The notes under the pieces: model-generated
The model's input: the letters and a program-made list of their open reading frames with translations, nothing else
Told to the model about the DNA's origin: nothing
The model's database searches: none
In this document: positions 29,359 to 37,264 of the stretch, piece by piece
How the letters are laid out: each line of letters begins with the position of its first letter
Numbering within the stretch: position 1 is the first letter of the stretch
Program-made: the position numbers and the translations under genes
Source: an uncultured Candidatus Saccharibacteria bacterium
GTDB lineage: Bacteria; Patescibacteriota; Saccharimonadia; Saccharimonadales; Saccharimonadaceae
Assembly (NCBI GenBank): GCA_947570505.1
Contig: CANOTH010000007.1
Span: 1 to 40,036 of the forward strand
Length of the DNA stretch: 40,036 bases
Reading direction: 5' to 3'

Positions 29359-29436
29359 CCATATGTAAAACCTCTTGCGAGGCTTAAAAAAATATGATAA
29401 GATTAACTACAGAATTAGATATTAACAAGGAGCATT

Positions 29437-29700
29437 ATGCCTGAACCTAAAAAACAGAGTAGCCCACGCAAGACTGGCCTCAGAAGGAGCCACCTGCGCC
29501 TGAAATTAGCGCGCAGTGTGAATCGTACTTCTCCAGTCAAAGCTTTTGAGACTGCTAAGCAAACCCCGAATGTCAAAGTCAAGACTGTTAAGGCAGCCTC
29601 GGCGCAGACTGTTAAAGAGAAAAAAGCCGCTAAGAAGGCTACTAAAGAAACAGGCGCCAAGAAGCGCACTACTACAAAAATCACTAAAAAGTCTAAATAA
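29437..29700 (+). CDS. rpmF: ribosomal protein bL32 with long basic tail
   Basis: An 87-residue basic protein. The first 40 or so residues (MPEPKKQSSPRKTGLRRSHLRLKLA) match the bL32 N-terminus PEPKK...R.GxRRSH. The zinc-binding cysteines of most bL32 are absent. The second half is a Lys/Thr/Ala tail (VKTVKAASAQTVKEKKAAKK and on) like that on trigger factor. Position directly before nusB, a Nudix gene and rnc supports a translation gene. If not bL32, it is a small basic nucleic-acid-binding protein. Confidence 0.65.
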   Translation: MPEPKKQSSPRKTGLRRSHLRLKLARSVNRTSPVKAFETAKQTPNVKVKTVKAASAQTVKEKKAAKKATKETGAKKRTTTKITKKSK

Positions 29701-29712
29701 AAGGGAAGGTAT

Positions 29713-30255
29713 ATGGCTAGTAACCGGCACTTAGGTAGAATTATTGTATTACAAAGTTTGTATGAGTATGAGTTTCGTACCAAAGCCGGCGATGCGACTG
29801 CGGATATTGATACTATAGTCGCAAAGAATATTGAGCCCTATACGAAAGCCTTAGGCGACACTGAGTTTGTCTATGGGTTAGCTCGGGCTGTATCGGAAAG
29901 GTTTCAGGATCTCGATACTAAGCTCCAGCCGATGGCTCCAGAGTGGCCGCTTAGTACCATCGCTGCCATTGATCGTAATGTCTTGAGGATGGGATTATAC
30001 GAGCTTGAATCTTCGGCGGATACCGTACCGCCAAAAGTGGCGATTAACGAGGCGGTAGAGCTGGCCAAGGCCTTTGGGTCAGATAATTCCTCGAAGTTCA
30101 TTAACGGGGTCTTAGGTACAGCTTATCGCCAAATTTATAACGAAGAACAATCTCCTAAGGAGAATAATTATGAAGAAAAAACACAGTCGGGCACATCAGC
30201 AGGCGACGGCCAAGCTGAAGCTGCAGTCGAGGAGGAAACCGCAGCCAGCGCCTAA
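29713..30255 (+). CDS. nusB: transcription antitermination factor NusB
   Basis: Binds boxA RNA with NusE (S10) to keep rRNA transcription going. In 180 residues the NusB helical fold is recognisable: NRHLGRIIVLQSLYEYEF at the start, AIDRNVLRMGLYEL and the C-terminal VAINEAVELAKAFGSDNSSKFINGVLGTAYR. The conserved part ends near residue 140. The last 40 residues are a Glu/Ala-rich tail that overlaps, in another frame, the basic N-terminus of the next gene by 86 bases. GGAAGG precedes ATG 29713. Confidence 0.95.
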   Translation: MASNRHLGRIIVLQSLYEYEFRTKAGDATADIDTIVAKNIEPYTKALGDTEFVYGLARAVSERFQDLDTKLQPMAPEWPLSTIAAIDRNVLRMGLYELESSADTVPPKVAINEAVELAKAFGSDNSSKFINGVLGTAYRQIYNEEQSPKENNYEEKTQSGTSAGDGQAEAAVEEETAASA

Positions 30256-33317: not shown

Positions 33318-33965
33318 TTAATGTTTGGTTTTGCGCGGCATGCGCCGTACTAGCATTATCGATACGATAATCATTGCTACCGTGCCAACAAGATTAGCCG
33401 CAATGGTCGTAATAGCAATGATCGGGCTCAAGGTGCTCGAGCTTTGGCTGTTCGACTCCCCGCCAGAATGGTTTTCTACTGAGCTTACTGCCTGTGGGTC
33501 CTCTAACACCGTATCAACCACGGTTTCTGGTATGGTTTGGCCATATTCTGATACCGTGCTAGATTCCGCCGTGGTTTCACTAGTAGTCTTAGGCTCGACA
33601 TGCTCAGTCGTTTGGACAGAGTTTGGCCCGACTGGGGCTCCAACCTGTTCCTCAAACCCTTGCCAAAACTCAGCTTCCTGATTCTCGCGAAACTCTTGCA
33701 CATTTTGCTGTGCCTCGCCTAGTTTCTCGGTGGCTTTGTCTTTAAGCTCCGGGGCTTTCTCCTTAGCCTTATCATAAAGCTCACCACCTTTTTCCTTCAG
33801 GTCGTCATAGACCTCTGGGGCCTTGTCTTTGGCATCTTCGTACCACTTTGTACCCTGATCCTTGACTTTGTCCCAAAGGGAATCATCCTCGGCGGCCTGC
33901 ACCGGTATTACTGGTGTTAAGGCCAATAACAAAATCGCCAATCTTTTACCTCCTAAAGTGCGCAT
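33318..33965 (-). CDS. exported helical-repeat protein with membrane anchor
   Basis: A 215-residue surface protein. A signal peptide (1-24, ending VQA), then residues 28-95 with amphipathic charged repeats (DKAKEKAPELKDKATEKLGE, with similar units before it) as in YtxH/LEA or apolipoprotein-like helices. A Ser/Thr/Glu-rich stalk follows, then one membrane helix (about 180-205, IAITTIAANLVGTVAMIIVSIML) and a basic stop RRMPRKTKH. Stress-related envelope spacer or lipid binder are both possible. Binding site AAGGGGG precedes ATG 33965. Confidence 0.78.
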   Translation of the reverse strand: MRTLGGKRLAILLLALTPVIPVQAAEDDSLWDKVKDQGTKWYEDAKDKAPEVYDDLKEKGGELYDKAKEKAPELKDKATEKLGEAQQNVQEFRENQEAEFWQGFEEQVGAPVGPNSVQTTEHVEPKTTSETTAESSTVSEYGQTIPETVVDTVLEDPQAVSSVENHSGGESNSQSSSTLSPIIAITTIAANLVGTVAMIIVSIMLVRRMPRKTKH

Positions 33966-34063: not shown

Positions 34064-34088
34064 AAAAAGGGGCTGCCTAGGCAGCCCC
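34064..34088 (-). terminator. terminator of the three-gene module
   Basis: A perfect 20-base palindrome GGGGCTGCCTAGGCAGCCCC (34069-34088) followed on the minus strand by TTTTT (34064-34068). Confidence 0.9.
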
Positions 34089-34110
34089 TCCCATCGCTAT
34101 AGTGATAAAA

Positions 34111-35364
34111 TCAATTTTCCGCTATTACCTGACCGTCCATCTGGATCAACTTCGGGCTGTCCAAACTAGCAATCGCCGGGGTAGGTGCTACCGGAGCCAG
34201 ATTTGGGATTATCGGAGTTGTCATACCGTGAAATATAGTTGGCATCACACTAAAACGGTCGCTATCGGCCGGATTATCAGTCAGAGCTGACCAGTCGATC
34301 TGCCGCATCAGATTATACAGTTCACGGAAGAAAATCATCTCGTTTTTGGCGGCCAGTTTCTCGACATCAATCATGCTCATGACGTATTTCAGAATGTATT
34401 TTTCCGAACGTACTGCCGCTGCATTCGGGTTAAAGCCCAGCGCAGTGAGCACTGCGTCACGATCAACCGCTCCGACGGATTCAGCCAGATTTTCGTTATT
34501 CAGAACATCCACGAAACACTTGTATTCATTATGAATCGCCAAAGCTTTCTGAATGCCGTTGCCGGCAAAAGTCTGATTAATGCTAATGCGCAAGTTCTTG
34601 CCCGCATCATACAGGGCTGCCGTACTGGGGTAGGAATTCTGCGGAATCTCCATCCCGAGAGTAGCATTCATAAAAAAGTCTGACTGTGACATGGAGTTGA
34701 GCTTGCCGAACCAATCCGACAAAGTTTGAGCTGTGTCTAGGACCGCAGGCACCAAAAACGTATCGATCCGCCCCATTAGCTGATCAACATCTTCACTAGT
34801 AGCATAGATCGGCACACCCTTGTAGCGGTCGCTCTGCTGATTCGACACCGCAAAGATCAACCCATACTTTCTCCGGGTCAAGATTGCCTGTAAATCATAA
34901 TAGAAGAGCGGCGCAGGGCGGGCATTTTTGATGGCATACTCATACACCATCCGCTCCAGTCTCTCCACGGACTTAAATACCCCCATGTTCTTAGCTAAAA
35001 TCGCCTTGAAACCAGCCAGATAGGTCTGATTCCCAAAGTTCAAGAAGCCGTCCTGCTCCAAAGCCTGCATCCAGTCTTCTTCACCAATATCACTGGCCAG
35101 CAAGGACATATCCGGCTCTCTCGCCGGCTGCGTCTGAGCTTTGGCTTCTGCTTCCCGTGCAGCCTTAGTATCCCTCATATTCTGAGCATATTCCAGCAAT
35201 TTCTCTTGTGCAAGTACGGTTTTAACCCCGACTTTCTCTAACTGTTCGGCTTTTTTGATATAAATCATATCAGTAATGCTCTGAAAACCTAACTGTTCCA
35301 AGACATCGTCAACAATATCTTCTTTCACGCCATTTTCTAAAAATAATTTTTTCAATTCATCCAT
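34111..35364 (-). CDS. unknown protein with SAM-like N-terminal helices (module gene C)
   Basis: An unrecognised 417-residue protein with no signal peptide. Residues 1-65 (MDELKKLFLENGVKEDIVDD, then VLEQLGFQSITDMIYIKKAE and LEKVGVKTVLAQEKLL) look like a five-helix SAM-type adaptor. A short Ala/Glu/Gln linker leads into a mixed domain of about 300 residues and a Pro-rich end. I chose ATG 35364 because AGGAGGG lies upstream and the previous gene ends two bases before; the longer frame to 35511 only shadows that gene. It appears co-transcribed with it and ended by a strong terminator. Confidence 0.75.
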   Translation of the reverse strand: MDELKKLFLENGVKEDIVDDVLEQLGFQSITDMIYIKKAEQLEKVGVKTVLAQEKLLEYAQNMRDTKAAREAEAKAQTQPAREPDMSLLASDIGEEDWMQALEQDGFLNFGNQTYLAGFKAILAKNMGVFKSVERLERMVYEYAIKNARPAPLFYYDLQAILTRRKYGLIFAVSNQQSDRYKGVPIYATSEDVDQLMGRIDTFLVPAVLDTAQTLSDWFGKLNSMSQSDFFMNATLGMEIPQNSYPSTAALYDAGKNLRISINQTFAGNGIQKALAIHNEYKCFVDVLNNENLAESVGAVDRDAVLTALGFNPNAAAVRSEKYILKYVMSMIDVEKLAAKNEMIFFRELYNLMRQIDWSALTDNPADSDRFSVMPTIFHGMTTPIIPNLAPVAPTPAIASLDSPKLIQMDGQVIAEN

Positions 35365-35366
35365 AA

Positions 35367-36254
35367 CTATCCCTCCTTTTGTTTTCTGGATGCAAGTTGA
35401 TAGGGCGGCTGACCCGGCTCCAAATCGGCATCGATCAGGAAATTCATGACCCGCGGTATGAGATAATCTCTTTGTTCCTGCAAACTGATAATGCAGTCCA
35501 TTACCGTACAAGTATCGTCGGGCAAGCTCAAATCAAAATCAATAATCTTCTGCAATAAGTCAAACAGTCTGAGCAAGACTCGATCCTCGGCCGGTATAGG
35601 TGTCCGCCAGTTAAAGCCATCCAGCTGAGCGCCAGCTAACTGTTTCACAATCCTTGCCACATCCTGATAATAAGCTACAATAGCGTCCAGAGACAGATCT
35701 TGCTGAATTTTCACCTTACTCCAATCGAGCATGGTCACAAAAGCTGAGCTCAGATCGATAATTAGATTATCAGTCGAGAGTGGCACTACTAAGCGCAAAC
35801 GAATTAGCCAATCTACCAAAGTAATCAAGCTGACAAACACGCGATATGCCGTCGGAACGGCGATGTAGTAGTGCTTGGCTAGCTGATCCATCAAGACAGT
35901 TTGGCCAAAATCCACACATCGGTAGCGCAGTACCAGAGCATGAGACTTTTTAAAATCGTCGATGACCACTTGAGGCAAAAAGTTCACCCGAATACAGCCT
36001 CGGTGACCTTGGCAATCTTGATAACAACATTTGGCATCACATGGCAACTTCATTTCCGCCATAAATTCTCGACGTCGCTGCTCGATCTGCTCTAAAGCCA
36101 GACTAATATTGATCTTACGACTGAGCGCTATTACTACGCATTCCTGATCTGGTGAGCGACAGGCATAATAACCTAAATCACCCTGGCGCCGAATTGCATC
36201 ATCAAAAATGCTAGTATAATAGCCACCAGATGACAGAGAAACTCCTTTGAACAA
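35367..36254 (-). CDS. possible degenerate protein kinase (module gene B)
   Basis: An unrecognised 295-residue protein. Residues about 70-90 hold a Cys cluster (CDAKCCYQDCQGHRGC). Around residues 140-185 a long helix is followed by VVPLSTDNLIIDLSSAF and VTMLDWSKVKI, the layout of a kinase catalytic loop (N-x-L-I) and metal site (L-D-W/F), but the catalytic Asp of HRD is missing, so a pseudokinase is the better guess. The start is TTG 36254: AAGAAGGTGAT lies four bases before it, as in the neighbouring gene; ATG 36260 would be only two bases from that site. Confidence 0.7.
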   Translation of the reverse strand: MFKGVSLSSGGYYTSIFDDAIRRQGDLGYYACRSPDQECVVIALSRKINISLALEQIEQRRREFMAEMKLPCDAKCCYQDCQGHRGCIRVNFLPQVVIDDFKKSHALVLRYRCVDFGQTVLMDQLAKHYYIAVPTAYRVFVSLITLVDWLIRLRLVVPLSTDNLIIDLSSAFVTMLDWSKVKIQQDLSLDAIVAYYQDVARIVKQLAGAQLDGFNWRTPIPAEDRVLLRLFDLLQKIIDFDLSLPDDTCTVMDCIISLQEQRDYLIPRVMNFLIDADLEPGQPPYQLASRKQKEG

Positions 36255-36326
36255 TTTCATCACCTTCTTTTAATGTAGTAGGACTAAATTTGTTCACCAA
36301 GAACAAAAAACATCCCCCATTCTTTA

Positions 36327-36355
36327 ATTATAGCAAAAATTTCAACCAAAGTCAA
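36327..36355 (-). promoter_or_regulatory. promoter of module genes B and C
   Basis: Minus strand: TTGACT (36350-36355), 17-base spacer, TGC-TATAAT (36327-36332). It lies right after the terminator of module gene A. Confidence 0.75.
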
Positions 36356-36383
36356 ATAAATATCCCCTATTGCTAGGGGATAT
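36356..36383 (-). terminator. terminator of module gene A
   Basis: ATATCCCCTA (36360-36369) and TAGGGGATAT (36374-36383) form a perfect stem with loop TTGC, followed on the minus strand by TTTATTTG. Confidence 0.75.
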
Positions 36384-36385
36384 GG

Positions 36386-37135
36386 CTAAATCGCCAGGTA
36401 CTTTTGTTCCCACATGCGAAACCGTTCCCGCTGGTTACGGAATTGCACGAAATTGTAGCGGTCCTGGTGCTGCTTACGGTATTCTTCAATCTTCCAAGAC
36501 AGCAGATAAGCCAAGTTATCCAGAGCTTGTAGATAAGTCTCCGACCAAGGGATTTTGAAACAAATGCCATCATAGTTATGGAAGTGTACAATACTAATGT
36601 CTATAAATCTAAAAACGTTATCAGCATAAACTATGTGGTATTTGGCCAGAGTCAAAAGCGGTATTGCAACTATAACGTAATGCAGCCCGAAATGAACATA
36701 AATCGTCGGATCCAGCTGGTCAGTATGATTCCAAACCCGCTCATAATCCCCTAAAAGGTTGTGTCGCGCAATATAGAACTGCTCTAGACGGCGCATAACG
36801 GACCACACTTGATTGCATTGCATTTCAGCTTCCGAGGCATTGTACTCAAAATGCTTGTACCGCGGCCCAATCCATGGAGCATCTTCAAACAGCTCAATCG
36901 GGTTTTCGTAGATGTCATCCATACAGCGAAAACCGTCCGACTCGATTTGGAAGTGCGCTAAGGTTAAGCCTGTATCCTCTTCAACCTGATGGAGGAGGTA
37001 ATTAACTTCCTCCAAGGCACTGCGCAAAACTTGTACTTTACGATCGTATGGTTGGCTGCGAAATTCCGGAATTGGCGCTTTCTTGGTCAAATCTTCATCT
37101 GACTCCTGAAGCTTTTGTAGGTCGATGTTAAACAA
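36386..37135 (-). CDS. unknown soluble protein (module gene A)
   Basis: An unrecognised 249-residue protein without signal peptide or clear membrane helix. It has Glu/Gln-rich helices (KVQVLRSALEEVNYLLHQVE), an aromatic middle (YVHFGLHYVIVAIPLLTLAKYHIVYADNVFRFIDIS split by polar residues) and a helical end (YLSWKIEEYRKQHQDRYNFV-like). TTG 37135 is chosen: AAGAAGGTGAT ends four bases before it; the GTG at 37144 is part of that site. The leader shares a 20-base match with the next gene of the module. Confidence 0.68.
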   Translation of the reverse strand: MFNIDLQKLQESDEDLTKKAPIPEFRSQPYDRKVQVLRSALEEVNYLLHQVEEDTGLTLAHFQIESDGFRCMDDIYENPIELFEDAPWIGPRYKHFEYNASEAEMQCNQVWSVMRRLEQFYIARHNLLGDYERVWNHTDQLDPTIYVHFGLHYVIVAIPLLTLAKYHIVYADNVFRFIDISIVHFHNYDGICFKIPWSETYLQALDNLAYLLSWKIEEYRKQHQDRYNFVQFRNQRERFRMWEQKYLAI

Positions 37136-37167
37136 AAAAATCACCTTCTTTCTAATGTACTCGTTCT

Positions 37168-37195
37168 ATCATAGCATAAAACTCGTCAAAGTAAA
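37168..37195 (-). promoter_or_regulatory. promoter of module gene A
   Basis: Minus strand: TTTACT (37190-37195), 16-base spacer, TGC-TATGAT (37168-37173). Confidence 0.5.
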
Positions 37196-37264
37196 CCACC
37201 ACCTGTAGCCTGCGCGATTAATAAGAATAATCGATTTCACTATGTATATTTTTTGTGCTTGTGA

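What the first reader, a model, noticed from the sequence alone, without database searches (positions are those of the whole stretch)
34064..37200. Unrecognised three-gene module with possible pseudokinase and SAM-like adaptor
Seen: three minus-strand genes (249, 295 and 417 residues), two promoters, two terminators, and matching translation signals. B has N-x-L-I...L-D-W in kinase-like order but no HRD Asp; C begins with SAM-like helices. None matches a family I know. They sit in the rpsP-khpA gap. Inference: an undescribed signalling or defence-like system.
Basis: partly seen in the sequence, partly recalled or inferred. Interest (0 to 1): 0.75.

Follow-up and report, generated by a model that had tools for sequence, protein, structure and literature searches.

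The report
Trimmed-down pseudokinase–SAM gene cassette
Three unannotated genes in a gut Saccharibacteria genome are a stripped-down, apparently settled version of a gene cassette that viruses and plasmids also carry, built around a dead protein kinase, a clustering protein and (in the full version) a purine-making enzyme with an altered active site; no description of the cassette was found in the sources searched.

Summary
In detail: three real minus-strand genes, A (249 aa), B (about 295 aa) and C (417 aa), with matching start signals and two terminators, sit between rpsP and khpA. B has a protein-kinase fold (AlphaFold model; structural Z 15.1 over 227 residues) but lacks the catalytic Asp and the beta-3 Lys. 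C begins with a SAM-like five-helix domain. A matches nothing.

Surveying relatives shows what it is. A-B-C occurs in 3 of 170 genomes of the genus. C otherwise closes a four-gene operon, B-VWA-PurA-like-C (19 of the other 22 C-positive genomes), nearly always with a convergent nucleotidyltransferase gene. The ABC C proteins are one clade nested beside those operons, so ABC most likely arose by losing the VWA, PurA-like and nucleotidyltransferase genes and gaining A. Kinase-VWA-PurA-like homologues recur in mycobacteriophages and on plasmids; the whole five-gene set is on a 408-kb predicted viral contig. The PurA-like enzymes keep the Asp13/Lys16/His41 motifs but carry WQGxxRxGxxD where PurA has its aspartate-binding loop.

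Best reading: a domesticated, non-catalytic scaffold/sensor remnant of a mobile nucleotide-processing cassette. Function is inferred; "defence" is untested. No description was found in PADLOC, Pfam, NCBIfam or the searched papers.

The parts
36386..37135 (-). gene A, 249 aa, TTG start; orphan family, only 3 members, always with B and C
   Evidence: no relation to V, P, N, C or B by hhalign
35367..36254 (-). gene B, ~295 aa, TTG start; pseudokinase
   Evidence: AlphaFold2 pLDDT 81, pTM 0.81; Foldseek 738 matches E<1e-3, all 50 listed are kinases; VIA Z 15.1, 3.7 A, 227 residues
35718..35783 (-). B catalytic-loop/DFG equivalent PLSTDNLIIDLSSAFVTMLDWS: HRD Asp replaced by Pro, Asn kept, DFG Asp kept as DW
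   Evidence: alignment to phage kinase HGAITPDNILIEPQDHAVVLIDWCYS; position inferred from sequence alignment
35994..36041 (-). B Cys-rich insertion CDAKCCYQDCQGHRGC, seen only in ABC-type B; possible Zn site
   Evidence: alignments A2, A8; Zn binding is inference
34111..35364 (-). gene C, 417 aa; SAM-like N-terminus plus large helical domain plus conserved C-terminal tail
35167..35364 (-). C residues 1-66, SAM-like five-helix domain
   Evidence: VIA Z 6.9 to BICC1 SAM, 62 of 63 residues; Pfam SAM_TNK E 0.0054 in a homologue
36327..36355 (-). promoter-like site for B-C, TTGACT-17-TATAAT
37168..37195 (-). promoter-like site for A, TTTACT-16-TATGAT (weak)
36360..36383 (-). intrinsic terminator after A
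34064..34087 (-). intrinsic terminator after C
   Evidence: visible

Best explanation
A-B-C is a domesticated, pared-down derivative of a five-gene cassette (pseudokinase, VWA protein, PurA-like enzyme, SAM protein, nucleotidyltransferase) whose parts are widespread on phages and plasmids. In the full cassette the PurA-like enzyme probably condenses a purine nucleotide with a nucleophile other than aspartate, while pseudokinase, VWA and SAM proteins form the regulatory scaffold that senses a nucleotide or peptide ligand. In the window's lineage the enzyme, VWA and NTase genes left the locus; B (non-catalytic, possibly nucleotide-binding) and C (SAM-mediated clustering) remain as a sensor/scaffold, with A as a new partner. 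Shown: gene reality, B's predicted fold and missing catalytic residues, C's SAM-like start, cassette conservation, nested origin of the ABC clade, PurA-like motif changes. Inferred: that the proteins bind each other, that a modified nucleotide is made, and that ABC now works as a scaffold/sensor.
For: Co-occurrence: intact A only with B and C (3/170 genomes); C in 25/170, 19 of them in B-VWA-PurA-C order, 18 of these with the NTase. Tree: ABC C proteins one clade (100/100) inside a 99/99 group with full (G168) and partly eroded (G195, G013) cassettes. Synteny: rpsP and khpA lie within about 1.3 kb of each other in 24 of 29 other loci, on one strand in 23, but are split by ABC in the window and G192. 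Phage/plasmid homologues: kinase-VWA-small-PurA in Bixzunavirus, VWA hhalign prob 99.3 and kinase prob 97.5 to the Saccharibacteria families, plasmid triads, whole B-V-P-C-N on a 408-kb viral contig and on a contig with terminase, endolysin and integrase. PurA-like: Asp13, Lys16, His41 kept, aspartate loop replaced by WQGxxRxGxxD. NAD/nucleotide genes nearby: NUDIX, NMN adenylyltransferase, nicotinamidase, ADP-ribosylglycohydrolase.
Against: No interaction, expression or activity data. ABC has a long stem branch (3.49) and long branches meet in the tree, so its exact sister is unsure. Direction (loss from the full cassette rather than gain) rests on that tree and on wider distribution. A has no known fold. 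The window genome also holds a solitary PurA-like gene (with NUDIX beside it) and G196 a solitary VWA gene, so some partners may still act in trans.
Confidence: 0.5

Rival explanations
1. ABC is a host immunity or decoy module: B and C mimic the phage-borne pseudokinase and SAM proteins and titrate or sense them when a phage carrying the full cassette infects.
For: Full cassette occurs on predicted phage contigs, including one with terminase, endolysin and integrase that is close to a Saccharibacteria cassette (VWA 92% identical); ABC is non-enzymatic, chromosomal and fast-evolving; patchy distribution (3/170).
Against: No genomic link to defence genes recognised, no PADLOC hit; most full cassettes in Saccharibacteria also lie among chromosomal genes.
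Confidence: 0.12
2. ABC still works with in-trans copies of the missing parts, i.e. it is the full cassette split over the genome, not a reduced one.
For: Solitary PurA-like gene G000:C28:5768-7141 next to a NUDIX gene in the window's own genome; solitary VWA in G196.
Against: No VWA or NTase found in the window genome, no VWA/PurA/NTase at all in G192; the solitary PurA-like copy has the catalytic Asp changed to Asn and a degraded RHGAGP motif; C28 could be contamination (MAG 6.5%).
Confidence: 0.2
3. ABC is a decaying remnant without function.
For: Loss of three cassette genes; missing kinase residues; long branches.
Against: Three species keep intact ORFs in order at 24-44% identity with ribosome-binding sites; in the window promoters and terminators are intact too; a new gene A and a new Cys cluster were gained.
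Confidence: 0.08
4. B is an active but atypical kinase (or AMPylator-like enzyme) despite lacking the HRD Asp.
For: Asn and DFG-type Asp retained; known atypical kinase-fold enzymes lack HRD Asp (general knowledge).
Against: ABC-type B also lacks the beta-3 Lys (Ala/Val/Ala).
Confidence: 0.1

Closest known systems
Bixzunavirus (cluster C1 mycobacteriophage) right-end genes: Ser/Thr kinase (phrog_3043), hypothetical (phrog_2971), PurA-like / '2-aminooxy adenylosuccinate synthetase' (phrog_1211)
   Same: Same order kinase-VWA-PurA; kinase also lacks HRD Asp (HGA) and has DW; VWA and PurA-like proteins clearly homologous to the full Saccharibacteria cassette
   Different: J-domain-like N-terminus on the kinase, no C, no A, no NTase noticed; function of the phage genes is unknown; the window's locus has only the kinase member
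TerY-P triad (vWA + PP2C phosphatase + kinase) of Ter stress systems (from general knowledge)
   Same: Kinase-like plus VWA gene pairing in the full cassette
   Different: No PP2C phosphatase seen; PurA-like and SAM genes instead; VWA absent at the window locus
vWA-MoxR ternary conflict systems (PMC7159879)
   Same: VWA component; these systems also contain catalytically disrupted kinase domains (PMC7159879)
   Different: No MoxR ATPase recognised in the Saccharibacteria cassettes; PurA or adenylosuccinate enzymes are not mentioned in that paper
Adenylosuccinate synthetase PurA (and phage PurZ)
   Same: PF00709 match over most of the length (1e-33), Asp13/Lys16/His41 kept in cassette copies
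   Different: Aspartate loop TTGRxRR replaced by WQGxxRxGxxD and the TKLD motif changed; absent from the window locus itself

Membership tests
Protein kinase fold (B) | bilobal protein-kinase fold | tested here: met
   predicted model: Foldseek E 6e-6, prob 1.00; VIA Z 15.1, rmsd 3.7, 227 aligned
Active protein kinase (B) | beta-3 Lys and HRD Asp | tested here: not met
   beta-3 Lys -> Ala, HRD Asp -> Pro in alignment with related kinases
Active protein kinase (B) | catalytic-loop Asn and DFG Asp | tested here: met
   N165 and D179 (numbering from ATG 36260) kept as DNLI ... LDWS
SAM domain (C residues 1-66) | five-helix SAM fold | tested here: inconclusive
   BICC1 SAM Z 6.9 over 62 residues, but a NusA region also Z 5.6; Pfam SAM_TNK and HHH_5 both weak in a homologue
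TerY-P triad | PP2C phosphatase gene beside kinase and vWA | tested here: inconclusive
   none recognised among the ORFs read around the cassettes, but by inspection only; no PP2C profile was run
vWA-MoxR ternary system | MoxR AAA ATPase gene | tested here: inconclusive
   none recognised at the Saccharibacteria loci by inspection, no profile run; one phage ATPase (phrog_1297) a few kb from the cassette on viral contig L111
PurA adenylosuccinate synthetase (P of the full cassette) | catalytic Asp, Lys, His | tested here: met
   conserved in all 17 cassette, phage and plasmid copies aligned; Asp->Asn in the solitary G000:C28 copy
PurA adenylosuccinate synthetase (P of the full cassette) | L-aspartate loop TTGRxR | tested here: not met
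   replaced by WQGxxRxGxxD or close variants
Known anti-phage defence systems | match to a PADLOC-DB model | tested here: not met
   no hits for A, B, C or the VWA, PurA-like and NTase proteins; kinase-bearing models hit the phage kinase only
PurZ (2-aminoadenine synthesis) | dGMP-specific active site and partner genes | not tested
   no PurZ reference was aligned; partner genes were not searched for

The most novel reading that the evidence does not exclude
A previously undescribed, mobile nucleotide-conjugate system (pseudokinase/J-domain kinase, VWA, re-tooled PurA-like ligase, SAM scaffold, NTase) shared by phages, plasmids and candidate-phyla bacteria, with ABC as a host-domesticated, enzyme-free sensor branch that responds to or neutralises it.
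Probability: 0.25. Interest if true: 0.85.

Novelty: new variant of a known kind. Interest (0 to 1): 0.62.

Why it matters
The full cassette links a degenerate kinase and a VWA protein to a purine enzyme whose substrate loop has been rebuilt, and it recurs in mycobacteriophages that grow on a standard laboratory host, so its chemistry can be tested directly. If the PurA-like enzyme makes a new nucleotide conjugate, it would be an unrecognised phage/plasmid pathway; ABC would then show how a bacterium with a tiny genome keeps only the sensing half. It also gives function-testable context to three protein families (phrog_2971, phrog_3043, phrog_1211) that are unannotated or only loosely annotated in phage genomes.

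Tried and rejected
Sequence searches of A, B and C against Pfam, NCBIfam, PADLOC, PHROGs and PDB gave nothing meaningful. A single-protein scan of genome contigs found no relative of C; the profile did. Foldseek/VIA on C beyond the SAM-like part gave only weak helical matches. A compared with V, P, N, B and C profiles: no relation. Housekeeping function for the rpsP-khpA gap rejected: most relatives lack the insert. Papers on vWA conflict systems, jumbo phages, NAD-ADPr systems and BREX do not mention PurA or adenylosuccinate enzymes, hence not this cassette; targeted literature searches found no description, though only open-licence papers are held.

Full report
What is there. The window belongs to a Saccharibacteria-type MAG (G000, 1.23 Mb, 95.9% complete, 6.5% contaminated); named relatives are Candidatus Saccharibacteria MAGs, many of them from ruminant gut. 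Three minus-strand genes lie between rpsP and khpA: A 36386-37135, B 35367-36254, C 34111-35364. A and B share the leader AAAGAAGGTGAT before a TTG start. A has its own weak promoter and a terminator; B and C are separated by 2 nt and follow a strong promoter, ending in a second terminator. Random sequence of the same composition gave no open run above 263 codons in 1000 trials.

What the proteins are. No Pfam, NCBIfam, PADLOC or PDB sequence family gives a meaningful match. B is predicted to fold as a protein kinase (AlphaFold2 pLDDT 81, pTM 0.81; Foldseek top hits all kinases; VIA Z 15.1 over 227 residues). Against related kinases its HRD Asp is Pro and its beta-3 Lys is Ala, while the catalytic-loop Asn and the DFG-type Asp (as DW) remain. 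C starts with a SAM-like five-helix domain (BICC1 SAM Z 6.9); the rest is helical without a clear match. A has only two known intact homologues.

Relatives in the genus. C is found in 25 of 170 genomes. In 19 it ends a four-gene operon: kinase-like B (about 270 aa), a VWA protein with a DTTGSMG MIDAS-type motif, a PurA-like protein (PF00709, 1.1e-33) and C; in 18 of these an NTase-like gene with GGSxLKGY...SDLD converges on C. One genome has B-C (G013), one a shortened VWA-PurA-C (G195), one B-PurA-C at a contig end (G150), and three, including the window, have A-B-C. A never occurs as an intact gene without B and C. The same operon is present in another genus of the family and, more diverged, in other families of the phylum.

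Direction of change. The ABC C proteins form one clade (100/100) inside a 99/99 group that also holds a complete operon (G168) and eroded ones (G195, G013); long branches make the exact sister unsure. rpsP and khpA lie 49-1289 bp apart in 24 of 29 other loci, on one strand in 23 and in opposite orientation in one, but are separated by ABC in the window and in G192. The simplest reading is insertion of a cassette followed by loss of VWA, PurA-like and NTase genes and gain of A. A solitary PurA-like gene with a neighbouring NUDIX gene remains elsewhere in the window's genome, with the catalytic Asp changed to Asn; G196 keeps a solitary VWA gene; G192 has none of the three.

Beyond the phylum. 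The VWA and PurA-like proteins lead to Bixzunavirus mycobacteriophages, where kinase, VWA, a small gene and PurA-like lie in a row. The phage VWA matches the Saccharibacteria VWA profile (hhalign prob 99.3) and the phage kinase matches the B profile (97.5); the phage kinase has a weak, sub-threshold N-terminal DnaJ match and also lacks the HRD Asp (HGA...DW). The same triad is on Rhodococcus, Tsukamurella, Agrobacterium and Acetobacter plasmids, often with a NUDIX gene; a Rhizobium phage has VWA-PurA near an NMN adenylyltransferase/NUDIX gene. On viral contigs the full B-V-P-C-N set is found on a 408-kb contig, and on another between terminase/endolysin and integrase genes. One Patescibacteria locus places the kinase, VWA and PurA-like genes among NMN adenylyltransferase, nicotinamidase, NAD kinase and ADP-ribosylglycohydrolase genes.

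Chemistry. All cassette, phage and plasmid PurA-like proteins aligned keep the Asp13, Lys16 and His41 positions of PurA, but the L-aspartate loop TTGRxRR is replaced by WQGxxRxGxxD or a close variant, and the TKLD motif is changed. That the nucleophile is therefore not aspartate is inference; the roles of these residues in PurA are from general knowledge.

Mechanism and confidence. Most likely ABC is a non-catalytic sensor/scaffold left from a mobile nucleotide-processing cassette (0.5 overall; evolutionary origin about 0.8, mechanism about 0.35). A defence role is possible but untested. PADLOC has no matching model for A, B, C or the Saccharibacteria cassette proteins, and the literature searches and papers read do not describe it; the library holds open-licence papers only.

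Limits. Most relatives are MAGs; cassette counts depend on contig ends. Motif positions come from alignments of divergent proteins. Viral status of the IMG/VR contigs is a prediction. Absence of neighbouring PP2C and MoxR genes was judged by reading ORFs, not by profiles.

Noticed in passing
window 33318-33965 (-): Gene D in the same gap: secreted-looking, LEA/YtxH/apolipoprotein-like amphipathic repeat protein with a C-terminal hydrophobic segment, own perfect promoter match (34041-34013); similar-looking genes fill the rpsP-khpA gap in relatives without ABC (L139-L143).
   Followed up: partly
L104 5768-7141 (G000 contig C28): Solitary PurA-like gene of the cassette family in the window's own genome, catalytic Asp changed to Asn, divergent from a NUDIX gene.
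   Followed up: yes
L113 6616-10392 (mycobacteriophage Dandelion): Kinase-VWA-small-PurA gene row in Bixzunavirus; the VWA is annotated only as hypothetical and the PurA as '2-aminooxy adenylosuccinate synthetase'.
   Followed up: yes
L168 3992-12667 (G453): Cassette genes embedded in an NAD cluster: NMN adenylyltransferase, nicotinamidase, adenylyltransferase-NAD kinase fusion, ADP-ribosylglycohydrolase.
   Followed up: partly
L021 5331-7099 (G013): Two-gene B-C variant followed by a receiver-domain-like gene (no Pfam hit; by eye).
   Followed up: no
G021:C5:6413-6655 (L122): Weak A-like stretch with two stops (E 3e-5), perhaps a relic of A about 23 kb from a full cassette.
   Followed up: no
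window 29415-29783 (-): Minus-strand open frame overlapping the start of a plus-strand gene, with a similar sequence in G192 (L014 7613-8056, +); probably conserved leader DNA, not a gene.
   Followed up: no
L167 8188-9195 (G298), L170 7046-8080 (G505): Related DnaJ-kinase proteins that keep intact HGD and DFG/DYG motifs, so the kinase family includes probably active members.
   Followed up: partly
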